Positions 2,345 through 29,321 of a DNA stretch of 64,000 nt are shown one piece after another. The notes beneath the pieces were generated by a model that saw only the letters and a list, made by a program, of their open reading frames with translations, did not search any database and had not been told where the DNA came from. This DNA comes from Bacteroidaceae bacterium HV4-6-C5C. GTDB taxonomy: Bacteria > Bacteroidota > Bacteroidia > Bacteroidales > Bacteroidaceae. Made by a program: the position numbers and the translations under genes. Positions within the stretch are counted from its first letter, which is position 1; each line of letters starts with the position of its first letter. The stretch spans positions 1 to 64,000 of the forward strand of contig VOIU01000015.1 in the NCBI GenBank assembly GCA_007896885.1. The letters are read 5' to 3'.

Positions 2345-2459
2345 GTTTTTACCTCTCCTTCATTCATTATAGTTGTTTTAATATGTTATTGGTTCTTTTG
2401 TTGCTTGCTACCTCTTTCATATATAGAGTTGTGTTGATTCTCGTGCAGAGTTTTTGTTG

Positions 2460-2547: not shown

Positions 2548-2975
2548 TTAATAACCTTAAATATAGTGATTTTTAGCTATATAATACCTTGTTGTAAGAG
2601 CTGTTTTATTCATTAAATTCCTGTCTTTATGATTCTATTTATAGCTAATAAAGAAAGTAGCTTGAAGAGCTGGAATATATCATAATAAAAGCTCATTAGT
2701 CTGACAAAATACATAATATTTTCTGAAAATAGATGGAATGGAAAGTATTGTTATTATCTTTAGCTTTTGTGTTCTGGTAGTTGGTAATGAATGAATTATA
2801 ATCCTGCAGCTGATGTAGGATAACTTTATTCACGTATATTTAGACTGATGATTTGTACCATTACTCTTTCTCGTTCTTTTTATAAATAGTGTTAAACCTT
2901 TTGCAATATTTCGTGTTTAAGCGATACTAAACGATAAATGAAATGAAAAAGTAAGGTATTGACATTTTCTTTTGC

Positions 2976-2983
2976 TACATTTG
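2976..2983 (+). promoter_or_regulatory. Predicted -7 promoter element for kduI
   Basis: TACATTTG matches TAnnTTTG and lies 65 bp before the kduI start codon. No clear -33 element is visible at the expected spacing. Confidence 0.4.
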
Positions 2984-3047
2984 CATCGTGTGCGCAAACG
3001 GAGCGTGCTAAAATTATTGATCAATCAACTTATAAACTTTATAAATT

Positions 3048-3890: not shown

Positions 3891-4011
3891 TTTCAGGCAG
3901 TTCTTTGCGGCTGAAGTGCATGAATAAGTGCTTTTTGCAAGCGTACAAAGGTGCTTCATGCCGCATAGGAGAAAATTAAAGATGTAATTTATCAACCTAA
4001 TTTATAGAAAC

Positions 4012-4806
4012 ATGGTAAACTTTTCATTAGAAGGCAAAGTGGCTCTTGTTACAGGAGCTTCTTATGGTATTGGCTTTGCTCTTGCAACAGCTTTTGCTCA
4101 AGCCGGCGCAAAAATTGTTTTCAACGATATTAAACAAGAACTGGTAGATAAAGGTTTGGCGGCTTATAAAGCTGAAGGAATTGAGGCTAAAGGTTATGTT
4201 TGTGATGTAACCAACGAAGAACAAGTGAATGCAATGGTTGCGCAGATCGAAAAAGAAGTTGGTGTAATCGATATCCTCGTAAATAATGCAGGTATCATTA
4301 AGCGCATTCCGATGTGTGAAATGTCTGCTGCCGAATTCCGTCAGGTAATTGATGTAGACTTAAATGCTCCGTTTATTGTATCGAAGGCTGTTATCCCTTC
4401 AATGATCAAGAAAGGACATGGCAAGATTATTAATATCTGCTCTATGATGAGTGAGTTGGGACGCGAGACTGTTTCTGCTTATGCTGCAGCTAAAGGTGGC
4501 TTGAAGATGTTAACTCGTAATATTGCTTCGGAATATGGCGAATACAACATTCAGTGTAATGGCATCGGCCCGGGTTATATTGCAACTCCTCAGACAGCTC
4601 CTCTTCGCGAGAAGCAACCGGATGGCTCACGTCACCCGTTTGATGCTTTCATCTTGGCTAAGACTCCTGCTGCACGCTGGGGCGAAGCAGAAGACTTGAT
4701 GGGCCCTGCCGTATTCCTTGCTTCGGATGCTTCAAACTTCGTAAATGGGCACGTACTGTACGTTGACGGTGGTATTTTGGCGTATATCGGTAAACAACCT
4801 AAGTAA
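4012..4806 (+). CDS. kduD: 2-dehydro-3-deoxy-D-gluconate 5-dehydrogenase (KduD-type SDR)
   Basis: This is a 264-residue classical short-chain dehydrogenase. It shows the cofactor motif TGASYGIG (14-21), the NNAG motif (91-94) and the catalytic triad S144, Y157 and K161 (YAAAK). Directly after kduI, it most likely reduces 3-deoxy-D-glycero-2,5-hexodiulosonate to 2-keto-3-deoxygluconate. Automated annotation often calls such proteins gluconate 5-dehydrogenase, and the two cannot be separated by motif alone; the kduI neighbour decides for KduD. Confidence 0.88.
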   Translation: MVNFSLEGKVALVTGASYGIGFALATAFAQAGAKIVFNDIKQELVDKGLAAYKAEGIEAKGYVCDVTNEEQVNAMVAQIEKEVGVIDILVNNAGIIKRIPMCEMSAAEFRQVIDVDLNAPFIVSKAVIPSMIKKGHGKIINICSMMSELGRETVSAYAAAKGGLKMLTRNIASEYGEYNIQCNGIGPGYIATPQTAPLREKQPDGSRHPFDAFILAKTPAARWGEAEDLMGPAVFLASDASNFVNGHVLYVDGGILAYIGKQPK

Positions 4807-4898
4807 TAAGCAAACTATACTAAGGGGGATAGCTGTACGGAATGTTCTTCCTAAAAGCTATCCCTCTTTATTTAAACGTCCAATTTAGAATTTAAAGT

Positions 4899-6149
4899 AT
4901 GAAGAGTTTATTTTTTTTATGGGCAACACTTATCTCTTGCTTTGCGTGTAGCAGTAACAGGCAGTCGCTTAATGTGATCGTCACAAATCCTTTGGCTGTG
5001 GCACGGGCAAACGAAATGATTGAAGTTTCGGCAAGTGATGTGTTCAGCAAGTTAAAGTTGGCTGATACTGCTCAGATTATTGTACTTGATGAAAAGGGTG
5101 AGCAAATCCCTTATCAGATTACTTATGATGAGAAAGTGATATTCCAAGCGAATGTTGCGGCTAAAGGCACAGCTACTTACACTATTCAGGCGGGCACTCC
5201 CAATGATTTTCCTGTAAAGGCTTGCGGAAAGTACTATCCTGAACGTGTGGATGATGTGGCATGGGAAAACGACTTGGTGGCTTTCCGTACCTATGGACCA
5301 GCGCTTCAAAAGACTGGCGAACGGGCTTTCGGCTATGATATCTGGACTAAGTATAACACGACTGAACCCGTAGTTGAGGACCGTTATGGAAATGAACTGA
5401 ATGCAGAAACAAAAGCAAAGATAGATGCATTGAAGAAGACTGATGCCAAAGCTGCTGATGCTTTGTATAAATCGGTTTCATACCATGTCGATCACGGTAA
5501 CGGGTTGGATTGCTATAAAGTAGGACCTACGCTTGGTGGTGGTACAGCTGCATTGATGGTGAACGACACAATTGTATATCCTTATTGCTATAAGACCCAG
5601 GAAATCCTGGACAATGGACCTCTGCGATTTACCGTAAAACTGGTCTATAACCCACTTAAGGTGAAAGGCAATGCAAATGTTGTTGAGACTCGTATTCTTA
5701 GCTTGGATGCAGGATCTCATTTAAATAAGACCGTTGTTTCGTACTCTAGTCTGAAAGAATCGTTCCCCATCGCTGTGGGAATTGTCTTGCACGAACCAAA
5801 CGGGGTGGTGGTTGCTAATGCAACCGGTGGTTATATTACTTATGTTGATCCGACTGACCCGCTTGATAAAACAGTCAACTATGGCAAAATCTTTGTAGGA
5901 GCTGCTTTCCCGGCATCAGTGAAAGAGGCTAAAAGCGTGCTGTTCTCGGATAAAGAGAAAAAAGAATTGCGCGGTGGAGCTGACGGTCATGTCTTGGCTA
6001 TCAGTAGCTATGAGCCGGGTGCCGAATTTGTGTATTATTGGGGGGCTGCATGGAGCAAAGCCGATATAAAGACTTCCGAAAGTTGGAATAAGTATATGGC
6101 AGACTATGCAAAAAAAGTGCGTAACCCGTTGAAGGTTGCACTGAAGTAG
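4899..6149 (+). CDS. DUF4861 family lipoprotein
   Basis: This is a 416-residue exported protein. The signal peptide ends in a lipobox (LISC at C14, or CFAC at C17), so it is probably anchored in a membrane. The body fits the Bacteroidetes family DUF4861, which often sits beside kduI/kduD and pectin or uronate genes; I am recalling this association, not testing it. It has a beta-rich, carbohydrate-enzyme-like composition with conserved aromatics (FGYDIWTKYN, YYWGAAWSKAD). A role in processing uronate-containing sugars is an inference from the operon; no catalytic residues can be assigned. Confidence 0.75.
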   Translation: MKSLFFLWATLISCFACSSNRQSLNVIVTNPLAVARANEMIEVSASDVFSKLKLADTAQIIVLDEKGEQIPYQITYDEKVIFQANVAAKGTATYTIQAGTPNDFPVKACGKYYPERVDDVAWENDLVAFRTYGPALQKTGERAFGYDIWTKYNTTEPVVEDRYGNELNAETKAKIDALKKTDAKAADALYKSVSYHVDHGNGLDCYKVGPTLGGGTAALMVNDTIVYPYCYKTQEILDNGPLRFTVKLVYNPLKVKGNANVVETRILSLDAGSHLNKTVVSYSSLKESFPIAVGIVLHEPNGVVVANATGGYITYVDPTDPLDKTVNYGKIFVGAAFPASVKEAKSVLFSDKEKKELRGGADGHVLAISSYEPGAEFVYYWGAAWSKADIKTSESWNKYMADYAKKVRNPLKVALK

Positions 6150-6341
6150 TCCGATCTGGTGTTAATATACAGAGGATGTGTCAAAAGTCTAAGTTCCTTT
6201 ATTTTGTCCTTGCTACAACTATAGTGGGAGTGTATGATATTTTTAAAACGGGACCTTTGAAGCACATTTTTATTCCTGATATCTCAGGGCGCTTGATATG
6301 CCTTTAACGAAGCAGATTTAGCTTTGAAATGATTGAAAAAG

Positions 6342-6375
6342 AAGAGGCTGTCTCATAACGGACAAGCCTCTTTCT
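6342..6375. terminator. Terminator hairpin after the uronate operon
   Basis: AAGAGGCT-GTC and GAC-AAGCCTCTT pair with one bulge around an 8-base loop and are followed by TTTCTTTTT on the plus strand. It lies in the 422-bp gap between the DUF4861 gene and the convergent deacetylase gene. The rest of that gap holds a second small hairpin at about 6516-6543 (GCAGGC/GCCTGC) and no gene. Confidence 0.65.
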
Positions 6376-6571
6376 TTTTGATTCTTTGTGGGGTGATACT
6401 GTGATTATATTAAGCGAAAGAATTGAAATATACTTGTTTTAGACGATAATTGCTTTCAAAATTACTGAGATAATTTGCTTTGGGGCATCTTCTTTAATAT
6501 CTGTCTCCAGTTTTACCACCGTGCAGGCTTATTGGTGCCTGCGGAACTAAATGCTAAGACGAAAGCATCTC

Positions 6572-7186
6572 TTACAGTAGTTTAAATTCATACCCCTCTT
6601 CTTTCAGAAAATCAATAGCGCGTGGTAAGGCGTATTGGAGATTTCCATTGTCCCATGATTTCAAGGAGTCATGGAAGGTAATGATTGAGCCGTTCCGTGC
6701 ATAGCGCATAACATTTGCCAGCACTTGAGGGCCACGCAGTTTTTTGCTATAGTCGCGCGTCACGAGATCCCACATGACTATCTTATAATACCTGCGAAGC
6801 GTCATATATTGCAGCCATCTCATGTGACCATGGGGAGGACGGAATAAGTTTGTTTTTATCAGTCCGTTTGCTTTGTCTGTATTTGCCAAATAATCATCGG
6901 AACCGAACTCAAAACCACGTATATGGTTGAAAGTATGATTTCCAATGCGATGTCCATGGTCGATGACCATTTGAAAGACATCGGGGTGCTTGCGTACATT
7001 GTCACCTACCATGAAGAAGGTAGCTTTGATGTTGTGTTTATCAAGCAAATCTAGTACCCATGGGGTTACTTCGGGAATTGGGCCGTCATCAAAAGTCAGA
7101 TAAATGGCTTTAACATTCGGATCCATTCTCCAAATCGCTGCTGGATACAATTTACGGACAAACTCCGGAGGTTGTTCTATAAACAT
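6572..7186 (-). CDS. Polysaccharide deacetylase (CE4/NodB-like)
   Basis: This 204-residue enzyme carries all main CE4 motifs: TFDDGP (31-36, catalytic and metal Asp), HTFNH (84-88, metal histidines), RPPHG (116-120) and ITFHD (169-173, catalytic His172). It presumably removes acetyl groups from N-acetylated sugars of peptidoglycan or an exopolysaccharide. No signal peptide or membrane anchor is visible, so either it acts inside the cell or export is by another route; some Bacteroidetes homologues also lack a clear signal. It is transcribed alone, downstream of the DUF2723 gene and separated from it by an inverted repeat. Confidence 0.88.
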   Translation of the reverse strand: MFIEQPPEFVRKLYPAAIWRMDPNVKAIYLTFDDGPIPEVTPWVLDLLDKHNIKATFFMVGDNVRKHPDVFQMVIDHGHRIGNHTFNHIRGFEFGSDDYLANTDKANGLIKTNLFRPPHGHMRWLQYMTLRRYYKIVMWDLVTRDYSKKLRGPQVLANVMRYARNGSIITFHDSLKSWDNGNLQYALPRAIDFLKEEGYEFKLL

Positions 7187-7242
7187 TGTGTTCAGAGTTT
7201 TATGCTTAATGATAAAGAGGAGTTGGCAAGAGTCTTTTTATC

Positions 7243-7325
7243 GCAGATTACTCAGATTATCACAGATTAATTATGTTGGTTATCATAATTTTAAGAATAT
7301 CTGCGTAAATCTGAGTAATCTATGG
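7243..7325. repeat. Imperfect long inverted repeat
   Basis: GCAGATTACTCAGATTATC (from 7243) and its inverted partner TCTGCGTAAATCTGAGTAATC (to about 7320) pair imperfectly over roughly 30 bp, with the inner arms TTATG/CATAA. It fills the gap between the DUF2723 gene and the deacetylase gene and may act as a terminator or be a dispersed hairpin element. Confidence 0.55.
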
Positions 7326-7360
7326 TGTCCTTAGACACAACCTCTTTCATTAAATCGTTT

Positions 7361-10300
7361 TCACTTTTTCAAGCGTCCAAGATATAAATTGTATGATTGC
7401 TCAACTTTAGGTTCGAAGGTCTTGACGAGCGGAGAGTTATATTTCTTCATCAATTTCACTTCTTCGTTGAGTAATGCCCAATGGTATTCAAACTCACGGG
7501 TTGAAACGGAGAAACGGCTGTCGTCCAGTTTCAGATACCATGTGATATATTCTACCGCTTTATTAGCCATTGCTTTAATGATTTCGTCACCTTGAGCTTG
7601 TTTACCCAACTGATAATATGCTTCCGCCATTTGCGTAGCGCCGTTTTGCCAATCGTAAGGTACGTTATAATCCGGAATCATCTTTTCTGCATAGTTCAGC
7701 GCAGCAAGAGCCTTATCTTTTTTGCCTTCCTGTATGAGTTGCGCTACAAGCTGTGCAAAAACACGGCGGTGAGAGTAACACATGCGCATTGCATTCTCGT
7801 CGATATAAAGTCCCGGTTTATTAATATTTCCGAATTTGAACTTATGCATCACGTTATCGTACATCTTTTCGCTATCCAGTTTGACTCCGGTTTTGCTAGT
7901 ATCGAAAGGAGTGAAGCGATAAGCTAGGCCCTCTTGTATAAAGTGGTTATCCATATTTAGGTGGTTTTCGGTTCCCACACTGATAGCCATATAAAGCGGA
8001 CGTTCCCAATTTGATTCGGCCAACATTTCGAGCATCATCAATTCACTCTTATACAGTGCCCGTTTGCCCTTCAATGAGATGGTCATATAGTCAGGAATAG
8101 AATCACCCGGAATCATCATTCCACTGCGGCGTACAGCCTCTTTATCAACCTTCATCACGATACTGTCCGTAGGAATAACTTTTAAGTCTTCACGTTTGCC
8201 ACGTACCCAGTATTTTAGGATGTTCTTCAATTCGTAAGGGTTCTCTCCAAACTGTTTCTGAAGATCTACCAATGTCTCTCTATGTCCGTCGAGAGCTTTT
8301 TGTTTTGCTTCGGCATAAAGTCCGTCGATGCTCTTTTTGTAGTCTGCGCGGATAGGTACATATTCGTTTGTTCCTTCTACATACTCCATTCTGTTCCAAG
8401 TGATAGGTAAAGATGGTGAGTTGTATGCCGGACGTTTCATCTGGTCAATATACCAGTCTGTCTGCAGATAACTTAAGTTGCAAGTACGTGTATCCGTACG
8501 GAAGCTCTCAGTTTCCTGATTATACCACAACGGGAAAGTATCATTATCTCCATTGGTGAAGATGACAGGATTTCCCTTTTCGGGTAACGTCATCAAATAG
8601 TTCTGCCCGAAGTCCCGGCAGAGATAACGGTTGCTACGGTCGTGATCGTCCCAAGTCTGGCTTGCCATCTGTATGGGTACTAGCAGACAGGCTACTGAAG
8701 CAATAATAGCAGCCGGAAGTTCCTTCGTTTTAGTATATCGTTCCAATAGCTTAACAAGTCCGGCAACTCCCATACCAATCCAAATGGCAAAGGCATAGAA
8801 TGAGCCGGCATAAGCATAATCTCGTTCGCGAGGTTGTGCCGGAGTCTGGTTCAGATAGAGTACAATTGCGATTCCGGTCATGAAGAACAGGAAGAACACC
8901 ACCCAGAACTGTTGGATGCCTCTTTGTCCACGATATGCCTGCCATAATAGTCCGATGAGGCCTAACAAAAGCGGTAAGCAGTAGAATACATTATGTCCTT
9001 TGTTTGCTTTCAATTCGTGAGGCAACTGGCTTTGATCTCCTATCAGCCAACTATCAACCGCAGATATACCTGTGATCCAGTTTCCGTGCTCTATCTCACC
9101 GCTTCCCTGCAAGTCATTCTGCCGTCCTGCAAAGTTCCACATGAAGTATCGCCAATACATCCAATTGAGCTGGTATGAGAAGAAGAATTTGATGTTTTCC
9201 CATTGGGTAGGCATATTCACCATTACTGTTTCACCACATTGATCATACGGCACATCATAGCCTTTAATGGTCATCCACTCCTTATACAGTTCGGCATGCT
9301 GGCTACTGTACATACGTGGGAACAGCATATTTTGTGCATACTCATAGTCTACTCGCCCGGGGATTTCAATATAGCTATCTTTTTCATCAGCTTTAGCTTT
9401 TTCCTTACGGATAAACTTTGTATCACTTGTAGCTACTCTAGGCTCGCAATAGCCATCTTTTACATCAAGAGCAACTTTCGATGAGAAAGCAGGTCCATAG
9501 AATAAAGGTCTCGTACCATATTGCTCACGACCCAAATATTCTCCCAGTGTGAAGATATCTTCCGGAGAGTTCTGATCCATCGGAGTATTTGCTGTGGAAC
9601 GAATGACAATGATGGCATACGAAGAATATCCGATGACAATCATCATGGTACACAGTAATGAGGTATTTAATGTACGGGCTGAGATGCGATATTTCTGTTT
9701 TACTTTCTCTTGGACCTTCGGGCTGAGGTATAATAGCAGTGCAAGTATTACTACTACACCGATAGCAATTGAACTCCCCCCGTGCCCATAGAATGGGATG
9801 CCCAATAAAGCGACTGTCAGTACAAAAGAAAGAGACATCCGGTTGCGACTTTTCTCGGTAAAGCTTTCGTATACCCCCCAAATGATGGCGGCAGCTAGGA
9901 CAATGATATAAACTATTACTCCACTATTGAATGACATACCCAACGTGTTTACGAAGAAGAGTTCAAACCAGCCTCCTACTTTCACAATGCCGGGAACAAT
10001 ACCATACAGTACGGCTGCAACAAGTATTATTGAAGCAAGTAGTGCTAACAATGAGCCCTTTACGTTTGCATTGGGAACTTTCTTATAATAATATACCAGA
10101 ACAATAGCCGGCAAACAAAGTAAATTCAGTAAGTGAACGCCGATACTCAATCCGGTAAGGTAGGCAATTAAAATTAACCAGCGATCGGAGTGAGGTTGGT
10201 CTGCCACATCTTCCCACTTCAGGATAAGCCAGAAAACAACGGCTGTAAACAGTGAGGAAAACGCATATACTTCGCCTTCAACCGCACTAAACCAAAAGGT

Positions 10301-10705
10301 ATCACTGAATGTGTAAGCCAAAGCACCCACTAACCCACTACCCATGACAGTGATTAGCTGTCCTTTGGTAATGTTTTTTTCATCGGTAATAACAAGTTTC
10401 CGCACCAAGTGGGTGATACTCCAAAAAAGGAATAATATACAGGCACCACTCATTAGTGCGCTCATATAATTCACCATTTTAGCTACTGTGGTTGCATCCG
10501 ATGCGAACTGAGAAAACAGATTGGCAATCAGCATGAAGAAAGGTGCCCCGGGGGGATGTCCTACTTCCAACTTATAACCGGTGGTAATAAACTCCGGGCA
10601 ATCCCAAAAACTGGCAGTCGGTTCAATCGTCATGCAGTAAACTGTCGCGGCAATAAGAAATGTAATCCAACCAATCAGGTTGTTTACGGTTTTGTACTGT
10701 TTCAT
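7361..10705 (-). CDS. DUF2723 membrane protein, GT-C glycosyltransferase-like
   Basis: This is a 1114-residue protein with about 12 or more membrane segments in the first 350 residues and around 590-700, followed by a large soluble C-terminal part. The N-terminal signature TASFWDCPEFITTGYKLEVG and HPPGAPFFMLIANLF is that of DUF2723, a family related to protein O-mannosyltransferases (the TMEM260-type GT-C fold) with acidic residues in the first extracytoplasmic loop. The soluble part near residues 990-1060 looks TPR-like (EGKKDKALAALNYAEKMIPD). The likely role is transfer of a lipid-linked sugar to exported proteins; this is inference from the family. It is a single gene with its own -7 motif at 10761-10768. 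Confidence 0.82.
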   Translation of the reverse strand: MKQYKTVNNLIGWITFLIAATVYCMTIEPTASFWDCPEFITTGYKLEVGHPPGAPFFMLIANLFSQFASDATTVAKMVNYMSALMSGACILFLFWSITHLVRKLVITDEKNITKGQLITVMGSGLVGALAYTFSDTFWFSAVEGEVYAFSSLFTAVVFWLILKWEDVADQPHSDRWLILIAYLTGLSIGVHLLNLLCLPAIVLVYYYKKVPNANVKGSLLALLASIILVAAVLYGIVPGIVKVGGWFELFFVNTLGMSFNSGVIVYIIVLAAAIIWGVYESFTEKSRNRMSLSFVLTVALLGIPFYGHGGSSIAIGVVVILALLLYLSPKVQEKVKQKYRISARTLNTSLLCTMMIVIGYSSYAIIVIRSTANTPMDQNSPEDIFTLGEYLGREQYGTRPLFYGPAFSSKVALDVKDGYCEPRVATSDTKFIRKEKAKADEKDSYIEIPGRVDYEYAQNMLFPRMYSSQHAELYKEWMTIKGYDVPYDQCGETVMVNMPTQWENIKFFFSYQLNWMYWRYFMWNFAGRQNDLQGSGEIEHGNWITGISAVDSWLIGDQSQLPHELKANKGHNVFYCLPLLLGLIGLLWQAYRGQRGIQQFWVVFFLFFMTGIAIVLYLNQTPAQPRERDYAYAGSFYAFAIWIGMGVAGLVKLLERYTKTKELPAAIIASVACLLVPIQMASQTWDDHDRSNRYLCRDFGQNYLMTLPEKGNPVIFTNGDNDTFPLWYNQETESFRTDTRTCNLSYLQTDWYIDQMKRPAYNSPSLPITWNRMEYVEGTNEYVPIRADYKKSIDGLYAEAKQKALDGHRETLVDLQKQFGENPYELKNILKYWVRGKREDLKVIPTDSIVMKVDKEAVRRSGMMIPGDSIPDYMTISLKGKRALYKSELMMLEMLAESNWERPLYMAISVGTENHLNMDNHFIQEGLAYRFTPFDTSKTGVKLDSEKMYDNVMHKFKFGNINKPGLYIDENAMRMCYSHRRVFAQLVAQLIQEGKKDKALAALNYAEKMIPDYNVPYDWQNGATQMAEAYYQLGKQAQGDEIIKAMANKAVEYITWYLKLDDSRFSVSTREFEYHWALLNEEVKLMKKYNSPLVKTFEPKVEQSYNLYLGRLKK

Positions 10706-16047: not shown

Positions 16048-18318
16048 TTAGAGATTGTCTTCGAAATATCTTGTAATCTTTTCGTGAAGGTGAACGCGGT
16101 CTTTACCTGCAACGTTATGCTTATGTGTCGGATAAATGAACAAATCCGGATATGTGTGCGCATCAATGCAAGCTTTCATAAACGAAAGAGTATGTTGAGG
16201 TACACAAGTGTCATCCTGATCGTCGTGGATAATGAGTAGATGTCCTTTAAGATTTCCGGCAAGATTCTTTAGATTGCACTCCTTGTAACCTTCCGGATTG
16301 CTTTGCGGAGTGTCCATATAACGCTCTCCATACATTACCTCGTAATAGCTCCAGTCTATTACCGGGCCTCCTGCCACGCCTACTTTAAAGATTTCGGGAT
16401 AGCGTAGAACCAATGCGGTAGTCATGTGTCCGCCAAAGCTCCATCCATGCACGCCGATACGATTACCATCAATGTATGGTAAGCTCTTTAAGAATTCTAT
16501 ACCTTTTACCTGATCTTTGCCTTCTTCTATGCCTAGATGACGGAAAGTAACATTTTCAAAGCTAAGGCCCCTGTTCTCACTTCCACGATTGTCGAGTGAA
16601 AACATGATGTAACCTTTGTTTGCCATGTAAACATCCCAGCCCCGTGCTCCATTTTGCCAGCCTCCTGTTACGACTTGTGCATGAGGTCCACCATAAACAT
16701 AGACAATTACGGGATACTTTTTATTCGGGTCAAAATCCGCCGGCTTGGTGATACGATAATAAAGATCGGTTACCCCGTCCGCTGCTTTTATTGTGCCGGT
16801 CTCGAAAGTCGGCATTACGTATCCCTGATATGGGTCTTTGGCTTGTAGTAGAGTAGTTTCTTTTACTTCTCCTTTTGTATCACAAATGCTAATAACTCGT
16901 GGAATGGTGGGTGAAGAATACCTGTCAATAAGATATTTGCCGCTTCCTGATAAGTCTGCTGTATGTGTCGCATCTCTTTTACCAATCAGATGGCGTTTGC
17001 CTGTCTTTATATCTACTCCGAATATGTTGCTTTGCAAAGGAGTAACTTCGGTACTGTTGATAATAACCTCACGTGAGGAAAGATTAAATCCCAAAATGTT
17101 TTGTACCAGCCAATTGCCCGAAGTCAATGCTTTCAGAGCAACACGAGCCGTTAGCTTCCCACCTTCCGGTGAAAGCTTCTCAACTCCTGCGGGAGATAAT
17201 TGTTCTTTAGTATTTGCGGCAAGATCACATAAGTAAAGATGGTTGTAACCGCTCCATTGGCTTTGATAAATGAATTTGCTTTTATCCCATGGCAAGAAAA
17301 TAATAGAATGCTGCGGTTCTACATATTTTGGATGTGTCTCTTCAATCAACACTCTCATCTGACTACCGGTTTCGGCATTGTATTGACAAAGCTTAGCATG
17401 ATTTTGGTCGCGATTCAATTCTATAAGATAAAGGCTTTTGCCATCAGGTGCCCAACTTATATTGGTGAAGTAACGGTCGGTGGGGTCACCGGCTTGCAAG
17501 AAGACAGTCTTTTTAGTTTCCGGATTATAAATGCCGACAGTCACTTTATGGCTGGTCATCCCTGCCATTGGGTAACGAACGTTATTGACTTTTCCTATAC
17601 GGGCGGTAATATCAACTAAAGGATATTGGGCAACCATACTCTCATCCATTCGGTAAAAAGCGAGTAAATTACCATCAGGACTCCAGAATGTTCCTTTTTG
17701 AATGCCGAATTCATTGCGGTGCACGCTTTGTCCGCAGACAATTCCTTCAGGCTCATTCGTAACTTGAGTTGTTATTCCATCTCCTGTGACAACCAAAAGG
17801 TTATTGTTTATTGTATAGGCAAGATTGCGGCTTTTGCTATTCCAGTCCTCATTTGCAGCTTCCTTTGTACGCTCCTGTTTCCAAATGATGCTCTTCTTAG
17901 CCCAGTTTATAAGAACTCTGTTTTTGCCTGTATTGACCAGCATTAAAGTAGGATATTCAGCCTTAGAAAGAGCCTTACCTGCTTTTTCATCAAAAGAATT
18001 TAAGAATACAGCACTGTAGAGGCTACTTATTTTCCCAAGTTGTTCTTTTCCCAATAAGCTGTTGACTTCTTCCAAAGAGATCACAGAGAAATGCTTTCCA
18101 TTCATCCATGTACCTTCTACCTTATCTATTCCAAGTTCCAGATATGCAAAGTCTCCGTACCATTGATACCACTTGTTTTCTGCGTATCGGTATGTGGCTC
18201 CTCCCGGAATTAAATCTTCGAGTGTAGGTTTCTTTAATTCTTGCGCCATGACAGTTGATGTAAAGAGCATGGGTAATGTAAGCAGCGCCGCACCCATACA
18301 ATTCTTAAATTTTTTCAT
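16048..18318 (-). CDS. S9 family peptidase, dipeptidyl-peptidase IV-like
   Basis: This 756-residue secreted serine peptidase has a signal peptide (1-25, cleavage after MAQ or MA). Its DPP-IV N-terminal beta-propeller spans about 100-500 and its alpha/beta hydrolase domain 510-756. The nucleophile is S627 in GWSFGG, the acid D702 or D703 (DDQDD) and the base H734 in THKHNV. The YGGPHAQ oxyanion region is intact. Proteins of this type cut Xaa-Pro di- or tripeptides from peptides in the periplasm; it could be DPP-IV or prolyl tripeptidyl peptidase, and the sequence does not settle which. It is encoded 24 bp upstream of purD. Confidence 0.9.
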   Translation of the reverse strand: MKKFKNCMGAALLTLPMLFTSTVMAQELKKPTLEDLIPGGATYRYAENKWYQWYGDFAYLELGIDKVEGTWMNGKHFSVISLEEVNSLLGKEQLGKISSLYSAVFLNSFDEKAGKALSKAEYPTLMLVNTGKNRVLINWAKKSIIWKQERTKEAANEDWNSKSRNLAYTINNNLLVVTGDGITTQVTNEPEGIVCGQSVHRNEFGIQKGTFWSPDGNLLAFYRMDESMVAQYPLVDITARIGKVNNVRYPMAGMTSHKVTVGIYNPETKKTVFLQAGDPTDRYFTNISWAPDGKSLYLIELNRDQNHAKLCQYNAETGSQMRVLIEETHPKYVEPQHSIIFLPWDKSKFIYQSQWSGYNHLYLCDLAANTKEQLSPAGVEKLSPEGGKLTARVALKALTSGNWLVQNILGFNLSSREVIINSTEVTPLQSNIFGVDIKTGKRHLIGKRDATHTADLSGSGKYLIDRYSSPTIPRVISICDTKGEVKETTLLQAKDPYQGYVMPTFETGTIKAADGVTDLYYRITKPADFDPNKKYPVIVYVYGGPHAQVVTGGWQNGARGWDVYMANKGYIMFSLDNRGSENRGLSFENVTFRHLGIEEGKDQVKGIEFLKSLPYIDGNRIGVHGWSFGGHMTTALVLRYPEIFKVGVAGGPVIDWSYYEVMYGERYMDTPQSNPEGYKECNLKNLAGNLKGHLLIIHDDQDDTCVPQHTLSFMKACIDAHTYPDLFIYPTHKHNVAGKDRVHLHEKITRYFEDNL

Positions 18319-18384
18319 TGTAGTGAAAGTTAATATCCTTGTTTATAAAGTTTATCTCTCTCAGAATATGCTTTATCCCGAAAA

Positions 18385-19764
18385 TTAATCATTGTCGGGT
18401 TTATGGAAAGATTGAAAATGTCTTCTCCTTGGTTCTCTATCCCCAGGCTTTTTCTCTTCATGATCACTTTTCCGGTGTTGATCTCTTCTCTCTCCTCTGT
18501 CCGAAAAGCTTTCTTTTCTTGAGAATTCTTTACGGGGAGCTCTGCTTCTATTTCCTCCTCTACTGAATCTTGATTCGGTTTTCACCTCTCTATTATCATC
18601 CGGAGCATCTTCTTTGTTTTGTTTGAATTCCTTGTACTTTCCTTCAAAAATCTCATATTTGCGGAATTCACAATCCAACGCTCCATTGAATAATGGAATT
18701 TTCTCGGTGGGCTTTAACCCAATCTGATCAAAACATTCTTCCCGATAAGAGAGGATCCACGCTGTATTTCCCGCAAAAGCATGTTTTAACCGTTCGCCGA
18801 TCATTTGATATAATCCTAAAAGATCATTGGTTGATATGCGCTCTCCATAGGGAGGATTCATTATGATAAACGATTTTTCAGCAGGTTGTTGGAATGCTTG
18901 GAATGGCTGTATTTTAAGTATAACATCTTTTGATACGCCTGCTGCCTTTACATTATGGGTTGCGATATCGTGAGCTTTAGGGCTGTTGTCGTAACCGTAA
19001 ATATGGTGTTTAAATTCCCGTTCCTGACTGTCGTCATTATATACGGTGTCAAACAGATCCCGATCAAAGTCATTCCATTTTTCAAATGCAAATTCTTTCC
19101 GGAATACACCCGGAGCAATATTCTTAGCAATGAGAGCCGCCTCAATAGGTATTGTGCCCGAGCCACACATCGGATCAATCAAGTCACATTCGCCATGCCA
19201 GCCTGTTAATAAAATCATACCGGCGGCAAGCACTTCGTTCAGAGGAGCTTCAACGGCCTCCTGGCGATACCCGCGGCGGTGGAGAGATTCTCCAGAAGAA
19301 TCAAGAGATAGCGTGCACTCAGTCTGTGCAATGTGGATATTCAGCAGGACATCCGGGTTGTTAATGCGTACAGATGGGCGTTTTCCCGTTTTCTCTCTAA
19401 AATAGTCGACAATAGCATCTTTAACCTTGTATGATACAAATTTGGAATGACGGAATTCTTCACTGAATACAACGGCATCAATAGCTATGGTTTGATCAAT
19501 CTTTAAGAAGTCTTCCCAGTGGATTGATTTTATTTCATCATAAACTTCGTCGGCATTCTTGGCTGAGAATTTTTTGATTGGCTTTAATATGCGTATAGCT
19601 GTTCGCAGACAGAAATTTGCTTTATACATCATTTCCTTATCACCGGTAAAGGCCACCATTCGTCTTCCTATCTGGATGTCGGATGCTCCTAGTGTTGTTA
19701 GCTCTTGTGCTAAAACTTCTTCAAGACCTTGAAAGGTCTTTGCTATCATTTCAAACGATTTCAT
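18385..19764 (-). CDS. THUMP-domain class I RNA methyltransferase (RlmL-like)
   Basis: This 459-residue protein has an N-terminal ferredoxin-like plus THUMP region (to about 165). A Rossmann methyltransferase domain follows, with DPMCGSGTIPIEAAL (about 198-212) and the N6-adenine/N2-guanine signature IIMNPPYGERIS. It corresponds to the RlmL half of E. coli YcbY, which methylates N2 of G2445 in 23S rRNA. Residues from about 380 on form a long, low-complexity tail rich in Arg, Glu, Ser and Asp (for example RSRAPRKEFSRKESFSDRGE), probably disordered and RNA-binding. Such tails vary between species. Confidence 0.87.
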   Translation of the reverse strand: MKSFEMIAKTFQGLEEVLAQELTTLGASDIQIGRRMVAFTGDKEMMYKANFCLRTAIRILKPIKKFSAKNADEVYDEIKSIHWEDFLKIDQTIAIDAVVFSEEFRHSKFVSYKVKDAIVDYFREKTGKRPSVRINNPDVLLNIHIAQTECTLSLDSSGESLHRRGYRQEAVEAPLNEVLAAGMILLTGWHGECDLIDPMCGSGTIPIEAALIAKNIAPGVFRKEFAFEKWNDFDRDLFDTVYNDDSQEREFKHHIYGYDNSPKAHDIATHNVKAAGVSKDVILKIQPFQAFQQPAEKSFIIMNPPYGERISTNDLLGLYQMIGERLKHAFAGNTAWILSYREECFDQIGLKPTEKIPLFNGALDCEFRKYEIFEGKYKEFKQNKEDAPDDNREVKTESRFSRGGNRSRAPRKEFSRKESFSDRGERRDQHRKSDHEEKKPGDREPRRRHFQSFHKPDND

Positions 19765-19816
19765 CTATATTATTTAAAATTCCTGTCTGCGGAATTATTC
19801 CGCTATAAATATCTTA

Positions 19817-22023: not shown

Positions 22024-22503
22024 TTAGAAACCGCAAAGCGACTTACTTTCTTCTGCTAGCTTCTTACTCATAATGGTGTCTTTTGGAACATATTTTCCTT
22101 CTTTGTATAATTCACTTAATAACCCAAGCGCACCACAATCCTTTAGCTCTGCTCCCTTTTTTAAGTATTCTATCGCCATCTTTCTTGTTTTTTCATCCAT
22201 TGTCCTTCCATAAGATTCGGAGCTTGTCTCTAAGTAGCTATATACATCAAAATAGGCCGGGGCATAATTATACCTGTTTGCCATAAAGATGGCATAAACC
22301 AGTTTTTCTTCATGATGTCCACTTGCTATATTAGCGTATCTCAATTCATCGTAAGCTGCCGTATCCCCTTTAAGTACCAATAGCCTTAATTCCTCAATGG
22401 AGCGGGAGTTGTTCATCGTTATGACTTCAACCTGCTTTTGTTTACAGGAAAATAAGGATACAATCAGAATAGATCCCATAAAATACATCAGTATGTGCTT
22501 CAT
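22024..22503 (-). CDS. Sel1-like lipoprotein, candidate Rhs immunity protein
   Basis: This 159-residue protein has a signal peptide with lipobox LFSC (C20). The C-terminal half reads like Sel1/TPR repeats (AIEYLKKGAELKDCGALGLL, then SELYKEGKYVPKDT). It starts 21 bp after the Rhs protein whose C-terminus is caspase-like, in the position immunity genes take in Rhs and other polymorphic toxin loci. Lipidation would place it in the periplasm or outer membrane. Immunity is inferred from position only. Confidence 0.6.
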   Translation of the reverse strand: MKHILMYFMGSILIVSLFSCKQKQVEVITMNNSRSIEELRLLVLKGDTAAYDELRYANIASGHHEEKLVYAIFMANRYNYAPAYFDVYSYLETSSESYGRTMDEKTRKMAIEYLKKGAELKDCGALGLLSELYKEGKYVPKDTIMSKKLAEESKSLCGF

Positions 22504-22524
22504 AATTCGGTTATATTTTTTTTG

Positions 22525-23628
22525 TTACTCAAACCATCGCCTTATGGCATTATACATTTCTTCCATTGACGTCATGATGCCCATTTTTTCATTGGGGAGT
22601 TGGCTTCCTTCAAAGCTGCCTACTTTTTTTCCATTATAGAACTTGCTCCATGTGCCTTCCTTATCCTTAATCGTTTTCTCCGCTTCACCGTTTTTTACTA
22701 TTTTAGTAGAAAAAGTTCCAATTTCTTTATTGGTGTTACTGTCAACCGATACATTTTCCGTTGGAGCTATTACTATAGTGTTTTTTAACGCTTTGGATAT
22801 TTTACCCGCAATAGGAAGCATATTATCGGAGGTTTCCTTACCGGTTTCACAAGAATCTAGAATTACGACTGTTTTTGCATCTTCACTCCTGCTTTTCCAT
22901 GTCTTGCTATTTTCATTCAGAAAAGTCTTAAACTTACTTCCTGTATTTATTGGTACGTCTTTTCCTTTATTGTTATCATATGCAAGAATAGTCGTATTGT
23001 TTCCATGTGCCCACACATGAATAGCCCCGTCATCTGTGTAATTGTTGGCCGCTTTTATTAATGTGGCATTCTTACGGTCATTAGGGTCGAGTACAATAAC
23101 CTTTTCTTTTCCGTCCGGATCAATAAACTTTATCGGGTTGTTGTCTACATAGGTATAAGGGCTTACTTCTGGATATTTTTCCGCTGTCTGGTCAATTGTC
23201 ATAAATCGTCCTAATGCTGCATCGTAATGCCTTGGCCTTGCTCCATAGTCATACCAATTCAGACCTTTCTTGCTATCGAACTCCTTACCGTTGTATTTAT
23301 AAGGCTGAACATTATTCGTATTTGCAAATACACCCCCGAACGGATAGTAATTGTTCGTCTCTTCCGGAGTACCATTCTTGTCTACAACCACGCGGTTATT
23401 CTCTTGATGATCCTGCAAATAATAGTGATACTGGTTGTCATTTAAAGAAACATATCCCGCTTCGGTAGCTAATTGCGTAGCTGTATCGTTTTCATAGATC
23501 ATATTTCCACAATAATCCGTTTTAGTGACGGTGCCGTTGATGGTATGCGTAGTGCGTAGTTTCGTTCCGTCGGCACTATATAGGTAAACAATTGTGCTAC
23601 CGTCATCAAAGGTTATCTGGCTTGGCAA
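22525..23628 (-). CDS. Rhs core fragment with C-terminal caspase-like toxin domain
   Basis: Residues 1-170 are the end of an Rhs/YD-repeat shell: YPFGGVFANTNNVQPYKYNG, KGLNWYDYGAR, ALGRFMTIDQ, and the hallmark boundary SPYTYVDNNPIKFIDPDGKE. After the boundary comes a variable domain of about 195 residues. It has AIHVWAHGNN and, about 70 residues later, TVVILDSCETGKE. A His-Gly followed by a hydrophobic strand ending Asp-Ser-Cys is the dyad pattern of clan CD (caspase-like) cysteine peptidases; this assignment is my inference. The reading frame stays open upstream to 23751, where TAG interrupts it (TAC in the sister copy). The protein is therefore an N-terminally truncated orphan without the full Rhs shell; a non-ATG start (TTG) is assumed here. 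Confidence 0.65.
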   Translation of the reverse strand: MPSQITFDDGSTIVYLYSADGTKLRTTHTINGTVTKTDYCGNMIYENDTATQLATEAGYVSLNDNQYHYYLQDHQENNRVVVDKNGTPEETNNYYPFGGVFANTNNVQPYKYNGKEFDSKKGLNWYDYGARPRHYDAALGRFMTIDQTAEKYPEVSPYTYVDNNPIKFIDPDGKEKVIVLDPNDRKNATLIKAANNYTDDGAIHVWAHGNNTTILAYDNNKGKDVPINTGSKFKTFLNENSKTWKSRSEDAKTVVILDSCETGKETSDNMLPIAGKISKALKNTIVIAPTENVSVDSNTNKEIGTFSTKIVKNGEAEKTIKDKEGTWSKFYNGKKVGSFEGSQLPNEKMGIMTSMEEMYNAIRRWFE

Positions 23629-24040
23629 ATTTAAAAAATTATACTGAATATCAGTAATGTTTTTGTTTAAATCTTTGGTTAAATTACCGTTTGCGTCATA
23701 AGCATACTCTGTTGTTGTATTCGTACCGTTCTTGAACTCGAAACCACTGTTCTAGGCGGAGGCCGTTGCAGCATCATTTACTGCCCTCAATTGATTTCCG
23801 TAACACTCATTGTCAGGTTGTTAACTAATCCGTAAGTAGTTGCTCTCGGTGAAAGAGTTTAAATTAGTAGAAATCGAACGGCCTTCGCCGTAAGTAACGC
23901 TTCTTATTTTGAAACGGGAGGCTTCATTACGTTTGTTGTATTTAGTGCGGGAAAAAATACCCTGGAATGTAAGATTCATCATCTCATGTCGGAGTACTAA
24001 GTGAAATCTATCTTTTTTCAAAATGGTCAACCGATATCAG
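23629..24040 (-). pseudogene. Degraded Rhs upstream segment (copy 1)
   Basis: Translation continues upstream of the Rhs fragment as YGNQLRAVNDAATASA, then a TAG stop (23752-23754), then FEFKNGTN and further YD-like residues (EYAYDANGNLTKDL). Farther up the frame is lost. A block of about 210 bp (23821-24030) is shared with the sister copy at 26066-26270 with small differences. This is decay of an Rhs core, not a separate gene. Confidence 0.6.
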
Positions 24041-24162: not shown

Positions 24163-24735
24163 TTACATATCACTTTCTTTTTCGATCACTTCGTTTATTT
24201 TGATATGACCATTGTCTGATACAATCCATTCAAACCAATAGCATATATCTGTGTCTGGAACACAGAAATTAATGGAAAATTTAATTCCCGTTGTTGTAAC
24301 ATCTGTAATCTTAAAATTGGATATACAATATTTAGATATTTCATTCTTGGGTATAAATGATCTAAAATCATCCCGTTGTATTTTCCTGTTTAAAATAATG
24401 TCTTTGCCGTCTTTGTTTATGGTTAATATTACATCCTGACTGGCATAGTATATAGTATCCTTTCCTTTCTCATCTGTAATTGGATATGTGTTAACAATTT
24501 GTCCATTATCTTGCATTTTATATAAAATACGATAACTACCAACAATAGAATCTACGCTGAGAGATTCAAAATGTATAACCTTATGCTTTCTTTCCACTTG
24601 GGTTGGTTTGACAGAAAGATCTACGCCAATTGAGTCTCTTACTTTTTCATCATTAATTTTATTTTTTGTCCCATTGCAGGATGATAATAAATATCCTACC
24701 ATGAACATCAATGTAAGTAAATATTTTCTATTCAT
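24163..24735 (-). CDS. DUF4738-like lipoprotein, candidate immunity protein
   Basis: This 190-residue protein has a signal peptide with lipobox LSSC (C20). The region KDIILNRKIQRDDFRSFIPK and ISKYCISNFKI fits my memory of the Bacteroides family DUF4738. It begins 5 bp after the end of the M23 toxin frame, so the two were one transcription unit. By position it is a candidate immunity protein against the M23 peptidase; a lipoprotein in the periplasm would sit where a peptidoglycan hydrolase acts. Its own frame is intact although the toxin frame is disrupted. Confidence 0.6.
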   Translation of the reverse strand: MNRKYLLTLMFMVGYLLSSCNGTKNKINDEKVRDSIGVDLSVKPTQVERKHKVIHFESLSVDSIVGSYRILYKMQDNGQIVNTYPITDEKGKDTIYYASQDVILTINKDGKDIILNRKIQRDDFRSFIPKNEISKYCISNFKITDVTTTGIKFSINFCVPDTDICYWFEWIVSDNGHIKINEVIEKESDM

Positions 24736-24740: not shown

Positions 24741-25384
24741 TTAGTTTTGAATTGGTTTTATTTCGGGTATTTTTATTTCTGAAACAGGAATTTGAGGCAG
24801 TGGTCTTTGGGTTGCTTCAGGACTCTGTCCAACGACAGTGACTTCCGGCAAGGTTCCACCACTATACTCTGGTTCTTGAGTAGGAGTTCTAGAATCTATT
24901 ATTTGTTGTGGGTCAACCAAGTGATTTGCTCCGTTTGCAGGATTTATCTTAGTGCCATCTACTGACACTTCATAATGCAAATGTGCTGTGTAGTCACTTT
25001 GACCATTTGCGCCAGACCTGTCCATAGTTCCTATTTGTTGGCCTTCTTTTATTTCAGTACCTACTTTAAGACCAGGACTTGTAGCATCTAAATGTATGTA
25101 TGAAGTCGAAACAGTACCATCTGTAGAAGTTATCTTTATCCTGTTGCCACTACCATCCCCATCACCAGCATGTCCTACTCTTGTAACAGTTCCATTGTGG
25201 GTTGCAACAATTGGCGCGCCCTGATCTGTATTGCCACCTCCTGTATGATTAACATCGACTCCTTGATGTAACCTCCCATGAAGTCTTGCTGCATGCCAGT
25301 TATTCTCATGGCGATGTCCATTTCCATTATAAGTTTTATTTACGGGCCATTCTCTTCTTCCATCAGGGTCTATCAGGGTCTATC
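24741..25384 (-). pseudogene. M23 metallopeptidase toxin domain of an Rhs protein, out of frame
   Basis: In the -1/+1 neighbouring frame of the Rhs core the sequence reads IDPDGRREWPVNKTYNG and on through an M23 (lysostaphin/LytM) domain. It has HxxxD as LHQGVDV, a central GAPIVATHNGTVTRVGHAG, and HxH as AHLHYEV. A Pro/Glu-rich tail follows. M23 enzymes cut peptidoglycan cross-links. An exact 10-bp tandem duplication at 25362-25381 separates it from the Rhs core. Removing one copy gives a single continuous Rhs-M23 protein with the normal DPDG boundary. Without that, no ATG-started product includes the HxxxD motif, so the toxin is probably silent. The lipoprotein gene follows 5 bp later. Confidence 0.7.
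25362..25381. repeat. 10-bp tandem duplication that causes a frameshift
   Basis: ATCAGGGTCT occurs twice in direct succession (25362-25371 and 25372-25381), within the codons for the IDPDG Rhs boundary on the minus strand. Ten is not a multiple of three, so the extra copy produces DPDRP-stop in place of DPDGRRE. Confidence 0.9.
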
Positions 25385-25881
25385 TTGTTTACTGGATTGT
25401 CAGAGCAATAGATATATGGAGAAACCCAAGGCTTTTTCTTGCAGAGTGGATCTACAGTAATAAATCTTCCTAAAGCTGCGTCATAATCCCTTGCCCCGTA
25501 GTCATACCAATTCAAGTCTTTCTTGCTGTCGAACTCTTTAGTATTATACTTGTAAGGCTGAATATTACCTGTACTTGCAAATACTCCTCCAAATGGATAG
25601 TAATTGTTCGTATCTTCCAGTGTGCCACTTTGATCAACAACCACGCGGTTATTTCCCTGATGATCCTGCAAATAATAGTGATATTGGTTGTCACTTAAAG
25701 AAACATATCCGGCTTCGGTTAGCAGGCGTTTGGCTGTGCCATTTTCATAGATCACATTGTCGCAATAGTCCGTTGTGGTAACAGTACCGTTTATAGTATG
25801 CGTAGTGCGGATTTTTGTTCCGTCGGCACTATACAAATAAACAATTGTACTTCCGTCACCGAAGGTTATCTTGCTTGGCAA
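25363..25881 (-). CDS. Rhs core fragment (copy 2), truncated by frameshift
   Basis: This 172-residue frame ends at the 10-bp duplication. It contains the Rhs core signatures SDNQYHYYLQDHQGNNRVVV, YYPFGGVFASTG, WYDYGARDYDAALGRFITVD and SPYIYCSDNPVNKIDPD. It is about 80% identical in appearance to the fragment at 22525-23628 up to the DPD boundary and unrelated beyond it. This is the pattern of orphan Rhs C-terminal cassettes, where a short piece of shell precedes each alternative toxin. It begins within a longer open stretch extending to about 26070 (YGNQLTVVNDAATASVYNG). A non-ATG start (TTG) is assumed. Confidence 0.65.
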   Translation of the reverse strand: MPSKITFGDGSTIVYLYSADGTKIRTTHTINGTVTTTDYCDNVIYENGTAKRLLTEAGYVSLSDNQYHYYLQDHQGNNRVVVDQSGTLEDTNNYYPFGGVFASTGNIQPYKYNTKEFDSKKDLNWYDYGARDYDAALGRFITVDPLCKKKPWVSPYIYCSDNPVNKIDPDRP

Positions 25882-26270
25882 ATTTAAATAATTATACTGA
25901 ACATTAGTGATGTTTTTGTTTAAATATTTGGTTAAATTGCCGTTTGCGTCATAAGCATACTCTGTTTTTGTATTCGTACCTTTCTTGAACTCGAAACTTC
26001 CGTTGTAGACGGAGGCCGTTGCAGCATCATTTACTACTGTTAATTGATTTCCGTAATACTCATTGTCAGGTTATTAGCTAATTCGTAAGTGGTTGCTCTC
26101 GGTGAAAGAGTTTAAATTAGTAGAAATCGAATGACCTTCGCCGTAAGTAACGCTCTTTATTTTGAAACGGGAGGCTTCATTATATTTGTTGTATTTTGTG
26201 CGGGAAAAATACCCTGGTATGTAAGATTCATCATCTCATGCCGGAGTACTAAGTGAAACCTATCTTTTTC
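25882..26270 (-). pseudogene. Degraded Rhs upstream segment (copy 2)
   Basis: In frame with the Rhs fragment, the sequence upstream reads YGNQLTVVNDAATASVYNG and EYAYDANGNLTKYLNKN up to about 26070, then a 1-bp loss breaks the frame (AGT-ATTACGG where YD-core sequence would need a TAT TAC). The segment 26066-26270 repeats 23821-24040. The rest of the Rhs shell is missing to the right. The following 390 bp up to the PNPOx gene holds only the 29-bp inverted repeat. Confidence 0.55.
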
Positions 26271-26428: not shown

Positions 26429-26491
26429 AATCAGTCGTTACTTGAATGGCATTCACTCGTACAGTGAATGCCATTCAAGTAACGACTGATT
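26429..26491. repeat. Perfect 29-bp inverted repeat with 5-base loop
   Basis: Positions 26429-26457 and 26463-26491 are perfectly complementary (inner stem ATGGCATTCACT / AGTGAATGCCAT) around CGTAC. It lies between the PNPOx gene and the Rhs relics. No T-run follows on either strand, so it is not a standard terminator. It could be a cruciform, a remnant of a mobile element end or a strong RNA hairpin. Confidence 0.9.
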
Positions 26492-27173: not shown

Positions 27174-29321
27174 TCATTCCATCAGTGCAAAATCCAATTG
27201 TTTCTTTTCTAAATTAGCGCGGGCTACCTTCACCGTAATGGTGTCTCCCAAACTGTAAACTCTGTTTTTACGTCTTCCTCTAAGGCAATAGTTCTTCTCA
27301 TCAAATTCGTAATAATCATCATCCAGATCGCGAATCGGTATCATACCTTCACATTTGTTCTCGTTGAGCTCTACGTACAGTCCCCATTCTGTGACTCCTG
27401 AAATGACTCCATCGTATATCTGACCCAAGCGCTCCGACATAAACTCTACTTGTTTATATTTTATTGAAGCACGTTCGGCATTAGCAGCTATTTGTTCCAT
27501 TCCGCTCGAATGGTCGCATAGCGCCTCATATTTCTTTTCAGAAACACTCCGACCGTTTTCATCCAGGTATTTTGTGAGCAACCGGTGTACCATCATATCC
27601 GGATATCGACGGATGGGAGAAGTAAAATGGGTATAATAATCGAATGCCAAACCATAATGCCCGATATTGTGAGTGGAATATCTTGCTTTTTGCATGGCTC
27701 GTATAGATACCGTTTCAATGAGATTCTCTTCTTTTTTACCCTGGATATCATCGAGTAGATGATTGATGGATTTCGACACTTCCGTCTTTGTACCACTCGT
27801 ACGCAGTTTGTAACCAAAACGTGCGATAAATTGTGATAAATTGTCGAGCTTCTCAGGGTCGGGAAGATCGTGTATACGGTAGGGGAATACTTTCGCTTTC
27901 TTGTTCTTGCCTACTTTGCCTATTCTTTCGGCTACAGTGCGGTTGGCAAGCAACATAAACTCCTCTACAAGTTTGTTGGCATCCTTGGAGACTTTGAAAT
28001 AGACACTGATAGGTTTACCCTTTTCATCGATCTCGAATTTTACCTCGTAGCGGTCGAAATTGATGGCGCCGGATGCAAAGCGTTTCTGGCGTAATATTTT
28101 TGCAAGATTGTCCAGCATCAGGACTTCGTCTTTAAAGTCACCGCTTTTGGTTTCGATAATTTGCTGGGCTTCTTCGTAAGTAAAACGACGATCCGATTTA
28201 ATCACCGTATGTGTTATACGTGAGCTTCTCACTTCGCCTTTATCTGTCATATCAAAAATTACCGAATAAGCCAGTTTCTCTTCGTTGGGACGAAGCGAAC
28301 AAATAAAGTTGCAGAGTCTTTCGGGTAGCATTGGAATGGTGCGGTCGACCAGATAAATGGAAGTCGCCCGTTTTTCCGCTTCCCTGTCGATAATGCTATC
28401 TTCTTTCACGTAGTGAGAGACATCGGCGATATGTACGCCCACTTCCCATAAGCCATTCTCCAACTGCTTAATAGAGAGTGCGTCATCAAAGTCCTTGGCA
28501 TCTTTCGGGTCGATGGTGAATGTAACGGTTTTTCTGAAGTCTTCACGTTTGGCAATCTCGTTTTCCGAAATCTCGGCGGGTATTTTGTCGGCCGCACTTT
28601 CCACAGCCGAAGGGTAGACATAAGGGAGACCGAACTCAGCTAGGATAGCGTGCATCTCGGTGGTGTTGTCCCCCGCTTTTCCCAAAACGTCAATTACTTG
28701 TCCGATCGGGTTCTTTGCTTTATCGGGCCACTCCACAACTTTCACTACTGCTTTATCACCTGTTTTACCTCCTTTTAACTTCTCCTTCGGGATGAAGATA
28801 TCGTTGGCTAAAGTTCTGTTTTCGGTAACCAGGAATGCGTACGATTTAGCTACCTCAAGCGTTCCTACAAATGTATCGTTGGCGCGTTCCAGAATCTCAA
28901 TCACCTCTCCTTCGGCTTCGCGCCCCCGGCGCTTTGCATAAAAGGAAATGCGAACCTTATCGTTGTTCATGGCATGGGCGGAGTTGCGTTCGGCTATGAA
29001 AATAGCGTCACCACCTCCATCGGGGAGGAAAGAGTTTTTTCCATTGCTTTTACGTTGGAAGGTCCCGGTCATCTCAACGCCATGGCTGTTTAACTTATAA
29101 TTGTATTTTTCAATTTCAGAGATATAATCATCCAAAACCAGTTCACTTAAAATATCTCTGCATAGCATTTTAAGAGGATGAGTCGAAAGACGCAGTTGTT
29201 CGAAAATATATTTGAGGGAAAGTACTTTGTTCGGGTTTGAATGGAAAAAATCCAGAACAGCAGCGCTGAGTTGTCTTTTGTTCATTCGCTTACCGGCTTT
29301 CTTCTCTTTCTTTTTTGCCAT
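27174..29321 (-). CDS. rnr: Ribonuclease R
   Basis: This is a 715-residue 3'-5' exoribonuclease that degrades structured RNA. Its order is: basic N-terminus, winged-helix/cold-shock OB domains (to about 240), RNB catalytic domain with TIDPKDAKDFDDALSIK (metal-binding aspartates) and RRYPDMMVHR, then an S1 domain (about 635-715, RLGQIYDGVISGVTEWGLYV). It lacks the long basic C-terminal tail of E. coli RNase R. It is upstream of the PNPOx gene by 12 bp (or 33 bp with the ATG start). Confidence 0.95.
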   Translation of the reverse strand: MAKKKEKKAGKRMNKRQLSAAVLDFFHSNPNKVLSLKYIFEQLRLSTHPLKMLCRDILSELVLDDYISEIEKYNYKLNSHGVEMTGTFQRKSNGKNSFLPDGGGDAIFIAERNSAHAMNNDKVRISFYAKRRGREAEGEVIEILERANDTFVGTLEVAKSYAFLVTENRTLANDIFIPKEKLKGGKTGDKAVVKVVEWPDKAKNPIGQVIDVLGKAGDNTTEMHAILAEFGLPYVYPSAVESAADKIPAEISENEIAKREDFRKTVTFTIDPKDAKDFDDALSIKQLENGLWEVGVHIADVSHYVKEDSIIDREAEKRATSIYLVDRTIPMLPERLCNFICSLRPNEEKLAYSVIFDMTDKGEVRSSRITHTVIKSDRRFTYEEAQQIIETKSGDFKDEVLMLDNLAKILRQKRFASGAINFDRYEVKFEIDEKGKPISVYFKVSKDANKLVEEFMLLANRTVAERIGKVGKNKKAKVFPYRIHDLPDPEKLDNLSQFIARFGYKLRTSGTKTEVSKSINHLLDDIQGKKEENLIETVSIRAMQKARYSTHNIGHYGLAFDYYTHFTSPIRRYPDMMVHRLLTKYLDENGRSVSEKKYEALCDHSSGMEQIAANAERASIKYKQVEFMSERLGQIYDGVISGVTEWGLYVELNENKCEGMIPIRDLDDDYYEFDEKNYCLRGRRKNRVYSLGDTITVKVARANLEKKQLDFALME

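What the first reader, a model, noticed from the sequence alone, without database searches (positions are those of the whole stretch)
24741..25881. M23 peptidase toxin domain split from its Rhs shell by an exact 10-bp duplication
ATCAGGGTCT is present twice in tandem at 25362-25381, right at the DPDG boundary codons. One copy less would fuse the Rhs core to an intact M23 domain (HxxxD and HxH motifs), with a lipoprotein gene 5 bp later. As it stands the toxin is out of frame. A tandem duplication in the boundary could be a fixed loss, or a reversible slip switching toxin production.
Basis: partly seen in the sequence, partly recalled or inferred. Interest (0 to 1): 0.65.

Follow-up and report, generated by a model that had tools for sequence, protein, structure and literature searches.

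The report
Orphan Rhs toxin module, frame-shifted
A Bacteroides chromosome carries a stranded fragment of an Rhs-type antibacterial toxin gene with its protector gene, and a 10-base tandem duplication that breaks the reading frame of the toxin; such stranded toxin and immunity fragments are already well known, and nothing found here shows that the duplication works as a switch.

Summary
ATCAGGGTCT stands in exact tandem at 25362-25381 (2.3 units, 25362-25384) on the DPDG codons. It puts an intact M23 (LytM-type) peptidase domain out of frame with the Rhs core. A DUF4738 lipoprotein gene starts 5 bp after the toxin stop. Eight related loci have the same joint, unduplicated and in frame, so this is a real lineage-specific mutation, probably a recent slip between two GAT triplets.

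The Rhs part is the last ~230 residues of a ~900-residue core. Its frame has no ATG, and further frame breaks upstream are shared with a second cassette (22024-24019). The 4.6-kb pair of cassettes sits between cysK and a PNPOx-like gene that are neighbours in two other Bacteroides genomes.

It is therefore an orphan rhs-CT/immunity module. The toxin would stay silent with or without the duplication, while the immunity gene keeps its own ATG. No relative or sister cassette examined shows the repeat, so a reversible switch is unsupported, though not excluded without reads. It is a known kind of element; the M23 toxin with DUF4738 lipoprotein is a well-supported predicted toxin-immunity pair.

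The parts
25362..25384 (.). 10-bp tandem duplication, 2.3 units, on the DPDG boundary codons
   Evidence: single copy in eight relatives
24741..25379 (-). M23 (LytM-type) peptidase toxin tip, open frame of 212 codons without a start codon before codon 119
   Evidence: Pfam PF01551 E=1.7e-17; conserved motifs; fold match; starts
25363..26070 (-). 3' end of an Rhs core, open frame of 235 codons without ATG, ending in TGA at the duplication
   Evidence: TIGR03696 Rhs_assc_core E=3.6e-18; matches residues 686-913 of a resident Rhs; no ATG
26071..26270 (-). Upstream remnant with stops in the core frame, same 5' edge as in the second cassette
24163..24735 (-). DUF4738 lipoprotein, predicted immunity gene for the M23 tip
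   Evidence: PF15889 E=3.5e-12; next to the M23 tip in all eight relatives
22525..24019 (-). Second orphan cassette: Rhs core end in frame with a different C-terminal tip
   Evidence: 79% aa identity of the cores; alignment; Rhs_assc_core
22024..22503 (-). Lipoprotein, predicted immunity gene of the second cassette
   Evidence: 71-76% identical genes follow related tips in cassettes on contigs C39 and C40

Best explanation
This is an orphan (displaced) rhs-CT/immunity module of a polymorphic toxin system, one of two such cassettes between cysK and a PNPOx-like gene in a Bacteroides genome. The module consists of the end of an Rhs core, an M23 peptidase toxin tip and a DUF4738 lipoprotein immunity gene. 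Shown: the core is truncated and has no ATG, the module runs from DPDG to the immunity stop codon, and the toxin frame is conserved in relatives. Inferred: the toxin is not made at this locus, the immunity protein may be made and guard the periplasm, and such modules act as toxin donors only after recombination onto a full rhs gene. The 10-bp tandem duplication most likely arose recently by slippage between two GAT triplets 10 bp apart and is an additional lesion in an already silent toxin fragment, not a switch.
For: Truncated core matching only residues 686-913 of a resident Rhs; no ATG in the core frame and none in the M23 frame before codon 119; 5' edge and frame breaks shared with a second cassette; DNA similarity to the nearest relative confined to the stretch from the boundary to just past the immunity stop; different Rhs backbones before the same tip in relatives; M23 tip and DUF4738 gene adjacent in all eight relatives; tip dN/dS 0.12-0.17; one copy and open frame at every relative's joint; cysK and the PNPOx-like gene adjacent in two other genomes. 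Orphan modules described in PMC3150448 and PMC3967940.
Against: The 235-codon core frame and the M23 frame both look conserved as coding sequence, which a long-dead fragment would not be; GTG/TTG codons exist in the core frame, so translation from a weak start is not excluded. No expression data. The short-read assembly could not be checked against reads.
Confidence: 0.86

Rival explanations
1. Reversible slip switch: the two-copy tandem expands and contracts, turning the toxin on and off in a population.
For: Exact tandem at a joint where one unit changes the frame; both frames otherwise open and conserved.
Against: No ATG and no Rhs shell, so neither state yields an obvious product; no such repeat at the joint of eight relatives or in the sister cassettes examined; only 2.3 units of 10 bp, unlike usual phase-variation tracts (general knowledge).
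Confidence: 0.04
2. Assembly or sequencing error: the true sequence has one copy.
For: All eight relatives have one copy; reads not available.
Against: A 23-bp tandem is well within the length that short reads resolve (general knowledge), and the two cassettes are too different near the joint to be confused (about 55% identity there).
Confidence: 0.05
3. The duplication is a joining scar left when the M23 module was recombined onto this core, so that core and tip were never in frame here.
For: It lies exactly at the module edge.
Against: The last 42 nt before it already resemble M23-linked joints (37/42 with L052, 22/42 with cassette 2), and the two copies are identical at synonymous sites too.
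Confidence: 0.08
4. Programmed +1 frameshifting at CCC-TGA in the second unit lets some ribosomes enter the M23 frame.
For: Sequence only: GAT AGA CCC TGA TGG, where a +1 step after CCC enters the M23 frame.
Against: No ATG in the core frame to begin translation; no relative has the duplication that creates it; no stimulatory element was tested for.
Confidence: 0.02

Closest known systems
Orphan rhs-CT/rhsI and cdiA-CT/cdiI modules (Poole et al. 2011, PMC3150448)
   Same: Core fragment of varying length without translation start, boundary motif (DPxG here), toxin tip and immunity gene; homology confined to the stretch from boundary motif to immunity gene; several modules together.
   Different: Here the two modules are not next to a main rhs gene, and the toxin frame carries an extra 10-bp duplication at the boundary.
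Orphan Rhs toxin of Salmonella Typhimurium LT2 (Koskiniemi et al. 2014, PMC3967940)
   Same: Fragmented rhs reading frame linked to an immunity gene, silent at its own place.
   Different: There recombination with the adjacent main rhs gene brings it into use; here the resident full-length cores are only 53-57% identical and the boundary frame is broken.
M23/LytM peptidoglycan peptidases (LytM, lysostaphin, ShyA, Csd)
   Same: HxxxD and HxH zinc motifs and fold.
   Different: Here a C-terminal tip of Rhs proteins with a dedicated lipoprotein partner. The term M23 does not occur in the held text of the 2012 polymorphic-toxin survey (PMC3482391); an M23 T6SS effector candidate is reported in Enterobacter (PMC10763514).

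Membership tests
Orphan rhs-CT/immunity module | Rhs core fragment lacking the N-terminal part and a translation start | tested here: met
   Only residues 686-913 of the core; no ATG
Orphan rhs-CT/immunity module | Boundary motif (DPxG) followed by a variable toxin domain and an immunity gene as one exchangeable unit | tested here: met
   Homology from the boundary to the immunity stop; different backbones in relatives; pair conserved
Orphan rhs-CT/immunity module | Toxin and immunity proteins active when expressed | not testable with these tools
   No experiment possible; purifying selection only
Orphan rhs-CT/immunity module | Lies downstream of a main rhs gene | tested here: not met
   Flanked by cysK and a PNPOx-like gene; full-length rhs genes are on other contigs. 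Reported arrays are usually, not always, next to the main gene, so this is not treated as defining.
M23 (LytM) peptidase | HxxxD and HxH zinc ligands and the M23 fold | tested here: met
   Invariant in nine homologues; Pfam; PDB fold matches
Phase-variable gene by tandem repeat slippage | Copy number varies between strains or relatives and both states give a meaningful product | tested here: inconclusive
   No repeat in eight relatives and no ATG for either state; variation within the species could not be tested

The most novel reading that the evidence does not exclude
The duplication is a real on/off element (by reversible slippage, or by +1 shifting at CCC-TGA) controlling an M23 toxin that is translated from this short core fragment by an unrecognised start.
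Probability: 0.03. Interest if true: 0.65.

Novelty: new member of a known kind. Interest (0 to 1): 0.2.

Why it matters
It adds a Bacteroides example of stranded toxin-immunity cassettes, with a clean module edge at DPDG and evidence that the tip sits behind different Rhs backbones. It also pairs an M23 peptidase tip with a DUF4738 lipoprotein as a predicted toxin-immunity family, which would give DUF4738 a testable role; no paper in the library searched mentions DUF4738. The duplication itself is an ordinary frame-breaking mutation.

Tried and rejected
Switch by repeat: no comparable repeats at the joints of relatives. Internal start for the M23 domain: the first in-frame start is codon 119, after the HxxxD motif. 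M23 tip loaded on a resident full-length rhs elsewhere in this genome: none found; the other M23 matches to it are at 42% identity or less. Mobile carriers: no relative of the tip in viral contigs by pattern search, none covering 80% of it in plasmids. Bacteroides-type promoter in the cassette region: no full match to the pattern tried. PADLOC: no hits. Relaxed selection on the toxin frame of this branch: not evident. One frame print was out of phase and was not used. The species was not identified; B. graminisolvens is in the same genus set.

Full report
Observation. The exact tandem ATCAGGGTCTATCAGGGTCT is at 25362-25381, once in the window. The perfect period-10 stretch runs to 25384, i.e. 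2.3 units. On the minus strand it reads GATAGACCCT GATAGACCCT GAT, so slippage between GAT triplets 10 bp apart is a simple origin (inference). Two-copy tandems of 8-10 bp are not rare in this window (six), so repeat length alone means little. Its place in the boundary codons and its absence from relatives are what count.

Frames. The Rhs core frame (26070-25363, minus) ends ...NPVNKIDPDRP* inside the duplication. The M23 frame (25379-24741) is open over 212 codons and matches Pfam M23 at 1.7e-17. The zinc motifs H38xxxD42 and H133xH135 are invariant in nine homologues. An AlphaFold model from those homologues has mean pLDDT 68.7, and the PDB matches listed are dominated by M23/LytM enzymes and LytM-like domains (LytM, Csd, ShyA, lysostaphin; best E 2.3e-7). 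I folded the M23 frame alone and did not build the joined protein.

Relatives. Searches of the genus (159 genomes), the GTDB species set and 393 genomes of the order gave eight close relatives of this tip: two copies in B. graminisolvens, one in a Paludibacter MAG, two in Bacteroidales MAGs, and three in further genus members at 53-60% identity. In all eight the joint has one copy and the Rhs core runs in frame through IDP[DN]G into the tip. dN/dS of the tip is 0.12-0.17 between the window and its five closest relatives. On the window branch N:S is 12:24, against 4:11 on the sister branch, so there is no clear decay. The frame break is therefore probably young.

Module edges. DNA similarity to the nearest relative (L050) starts at window 25375, inside the duplicated boundary, and ends 3 bp beyond the immunity stop. 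The Rhs backbones in front of the tip differ between loci. This is the signature of a toxin-immunity module that moves between Rhs genes. The last 42 nt before the joint resemble M23-linked joints (37/42 with L052; 22/42 with cassette 2), while the 120 nt further up resemble cassette 2 at least as well (86/127 against 81/122). So the module seems to have arrived with its own in-frame joint, and the duplication came afterwards (inference).

No shell. The core piece corresponds only to residues 686-913 of a 1113-residue resident Rhs frame. The open frame has no ATG. Upstream of it the frame holds stops, and the same 5' edge and frame breaks occur in a second cassette (24019-22024), about 90% identical there. 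That cassette has another tip and another lipoprotein, and related tip/immunity pairs recur in tandem cassettes on contigs C39 and C40 of the same genome. In two other Bacteroides genomes cysK and the PNPOx-like gene are direct neighbours (L083, L084), so the 4.6-kb pair of cassettes is an insertion in this lineage or a loss in the others. Long Rhs frames of the same core lineage exist in other Bacteroides (70-74% identity, 1007-1193 codons) but not in this genome, where the other cores are about 47-57% identical.

Mechanism. Poole et al. 2011 (PMC3150448) describe orphan CT/immunity modules that lack translation signals for the toxin, and show for one of them that the immunity protein is made. 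Koskiniemi et al. 2014 (PMC3967940) give evidence that recombination with the main rhs gene can bring an orphan toxin into use. The present locus fits that description. The extra point here is that the toxin frame at the boundary is broken too. A lipoprotein as partner suits a periplasmic target such as peptidoglycan (inference). The switch idea would need a start codon, a delivery part and a variable repeat; the first two are not found here, and the third is not seen in relatives and is untested within the species.

Verdict. Confirmed observation, ordinary explanation. The remaining modest interest is the M23-DUF4738 pair as a predicted toxin-immunity family.

Noticed in passing
window 26429-26491: A perfect 29-nt inverted repeat with a 5-nt loop, part of a motif family (around GTTACTTGAATGCCATTCA) found at several other places in this genome, some in tandem-like form.
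   Followed up: partly
L056 (G000:C40) 1-10694: Tandem array of startless Rhs core ends, each followed by a related tip and a 71-76% identical lipoprotein gene; the contig ends fall inside rhs repeats.
   Followed up: partly
L058 (B. graminisolvens) 4118-5697 and 16929-19788: Two copies of the M23/DUF4738 module 14 kb apart in an rhs cassette array; the immunity genes are 98% identical in DNA, the toxin tips 95%.
   Followed up: partly
window 27825-27844: Another exact 10-bp two-copy tandem (GATAAATTGT), inside the rnr reading frame, which stays open.
   Followed up: no
G037:C1:204148-229549: At least eleven rhs core copies of the same lineage within 25 kb in another Bacteroides genome.
   Followed up: no
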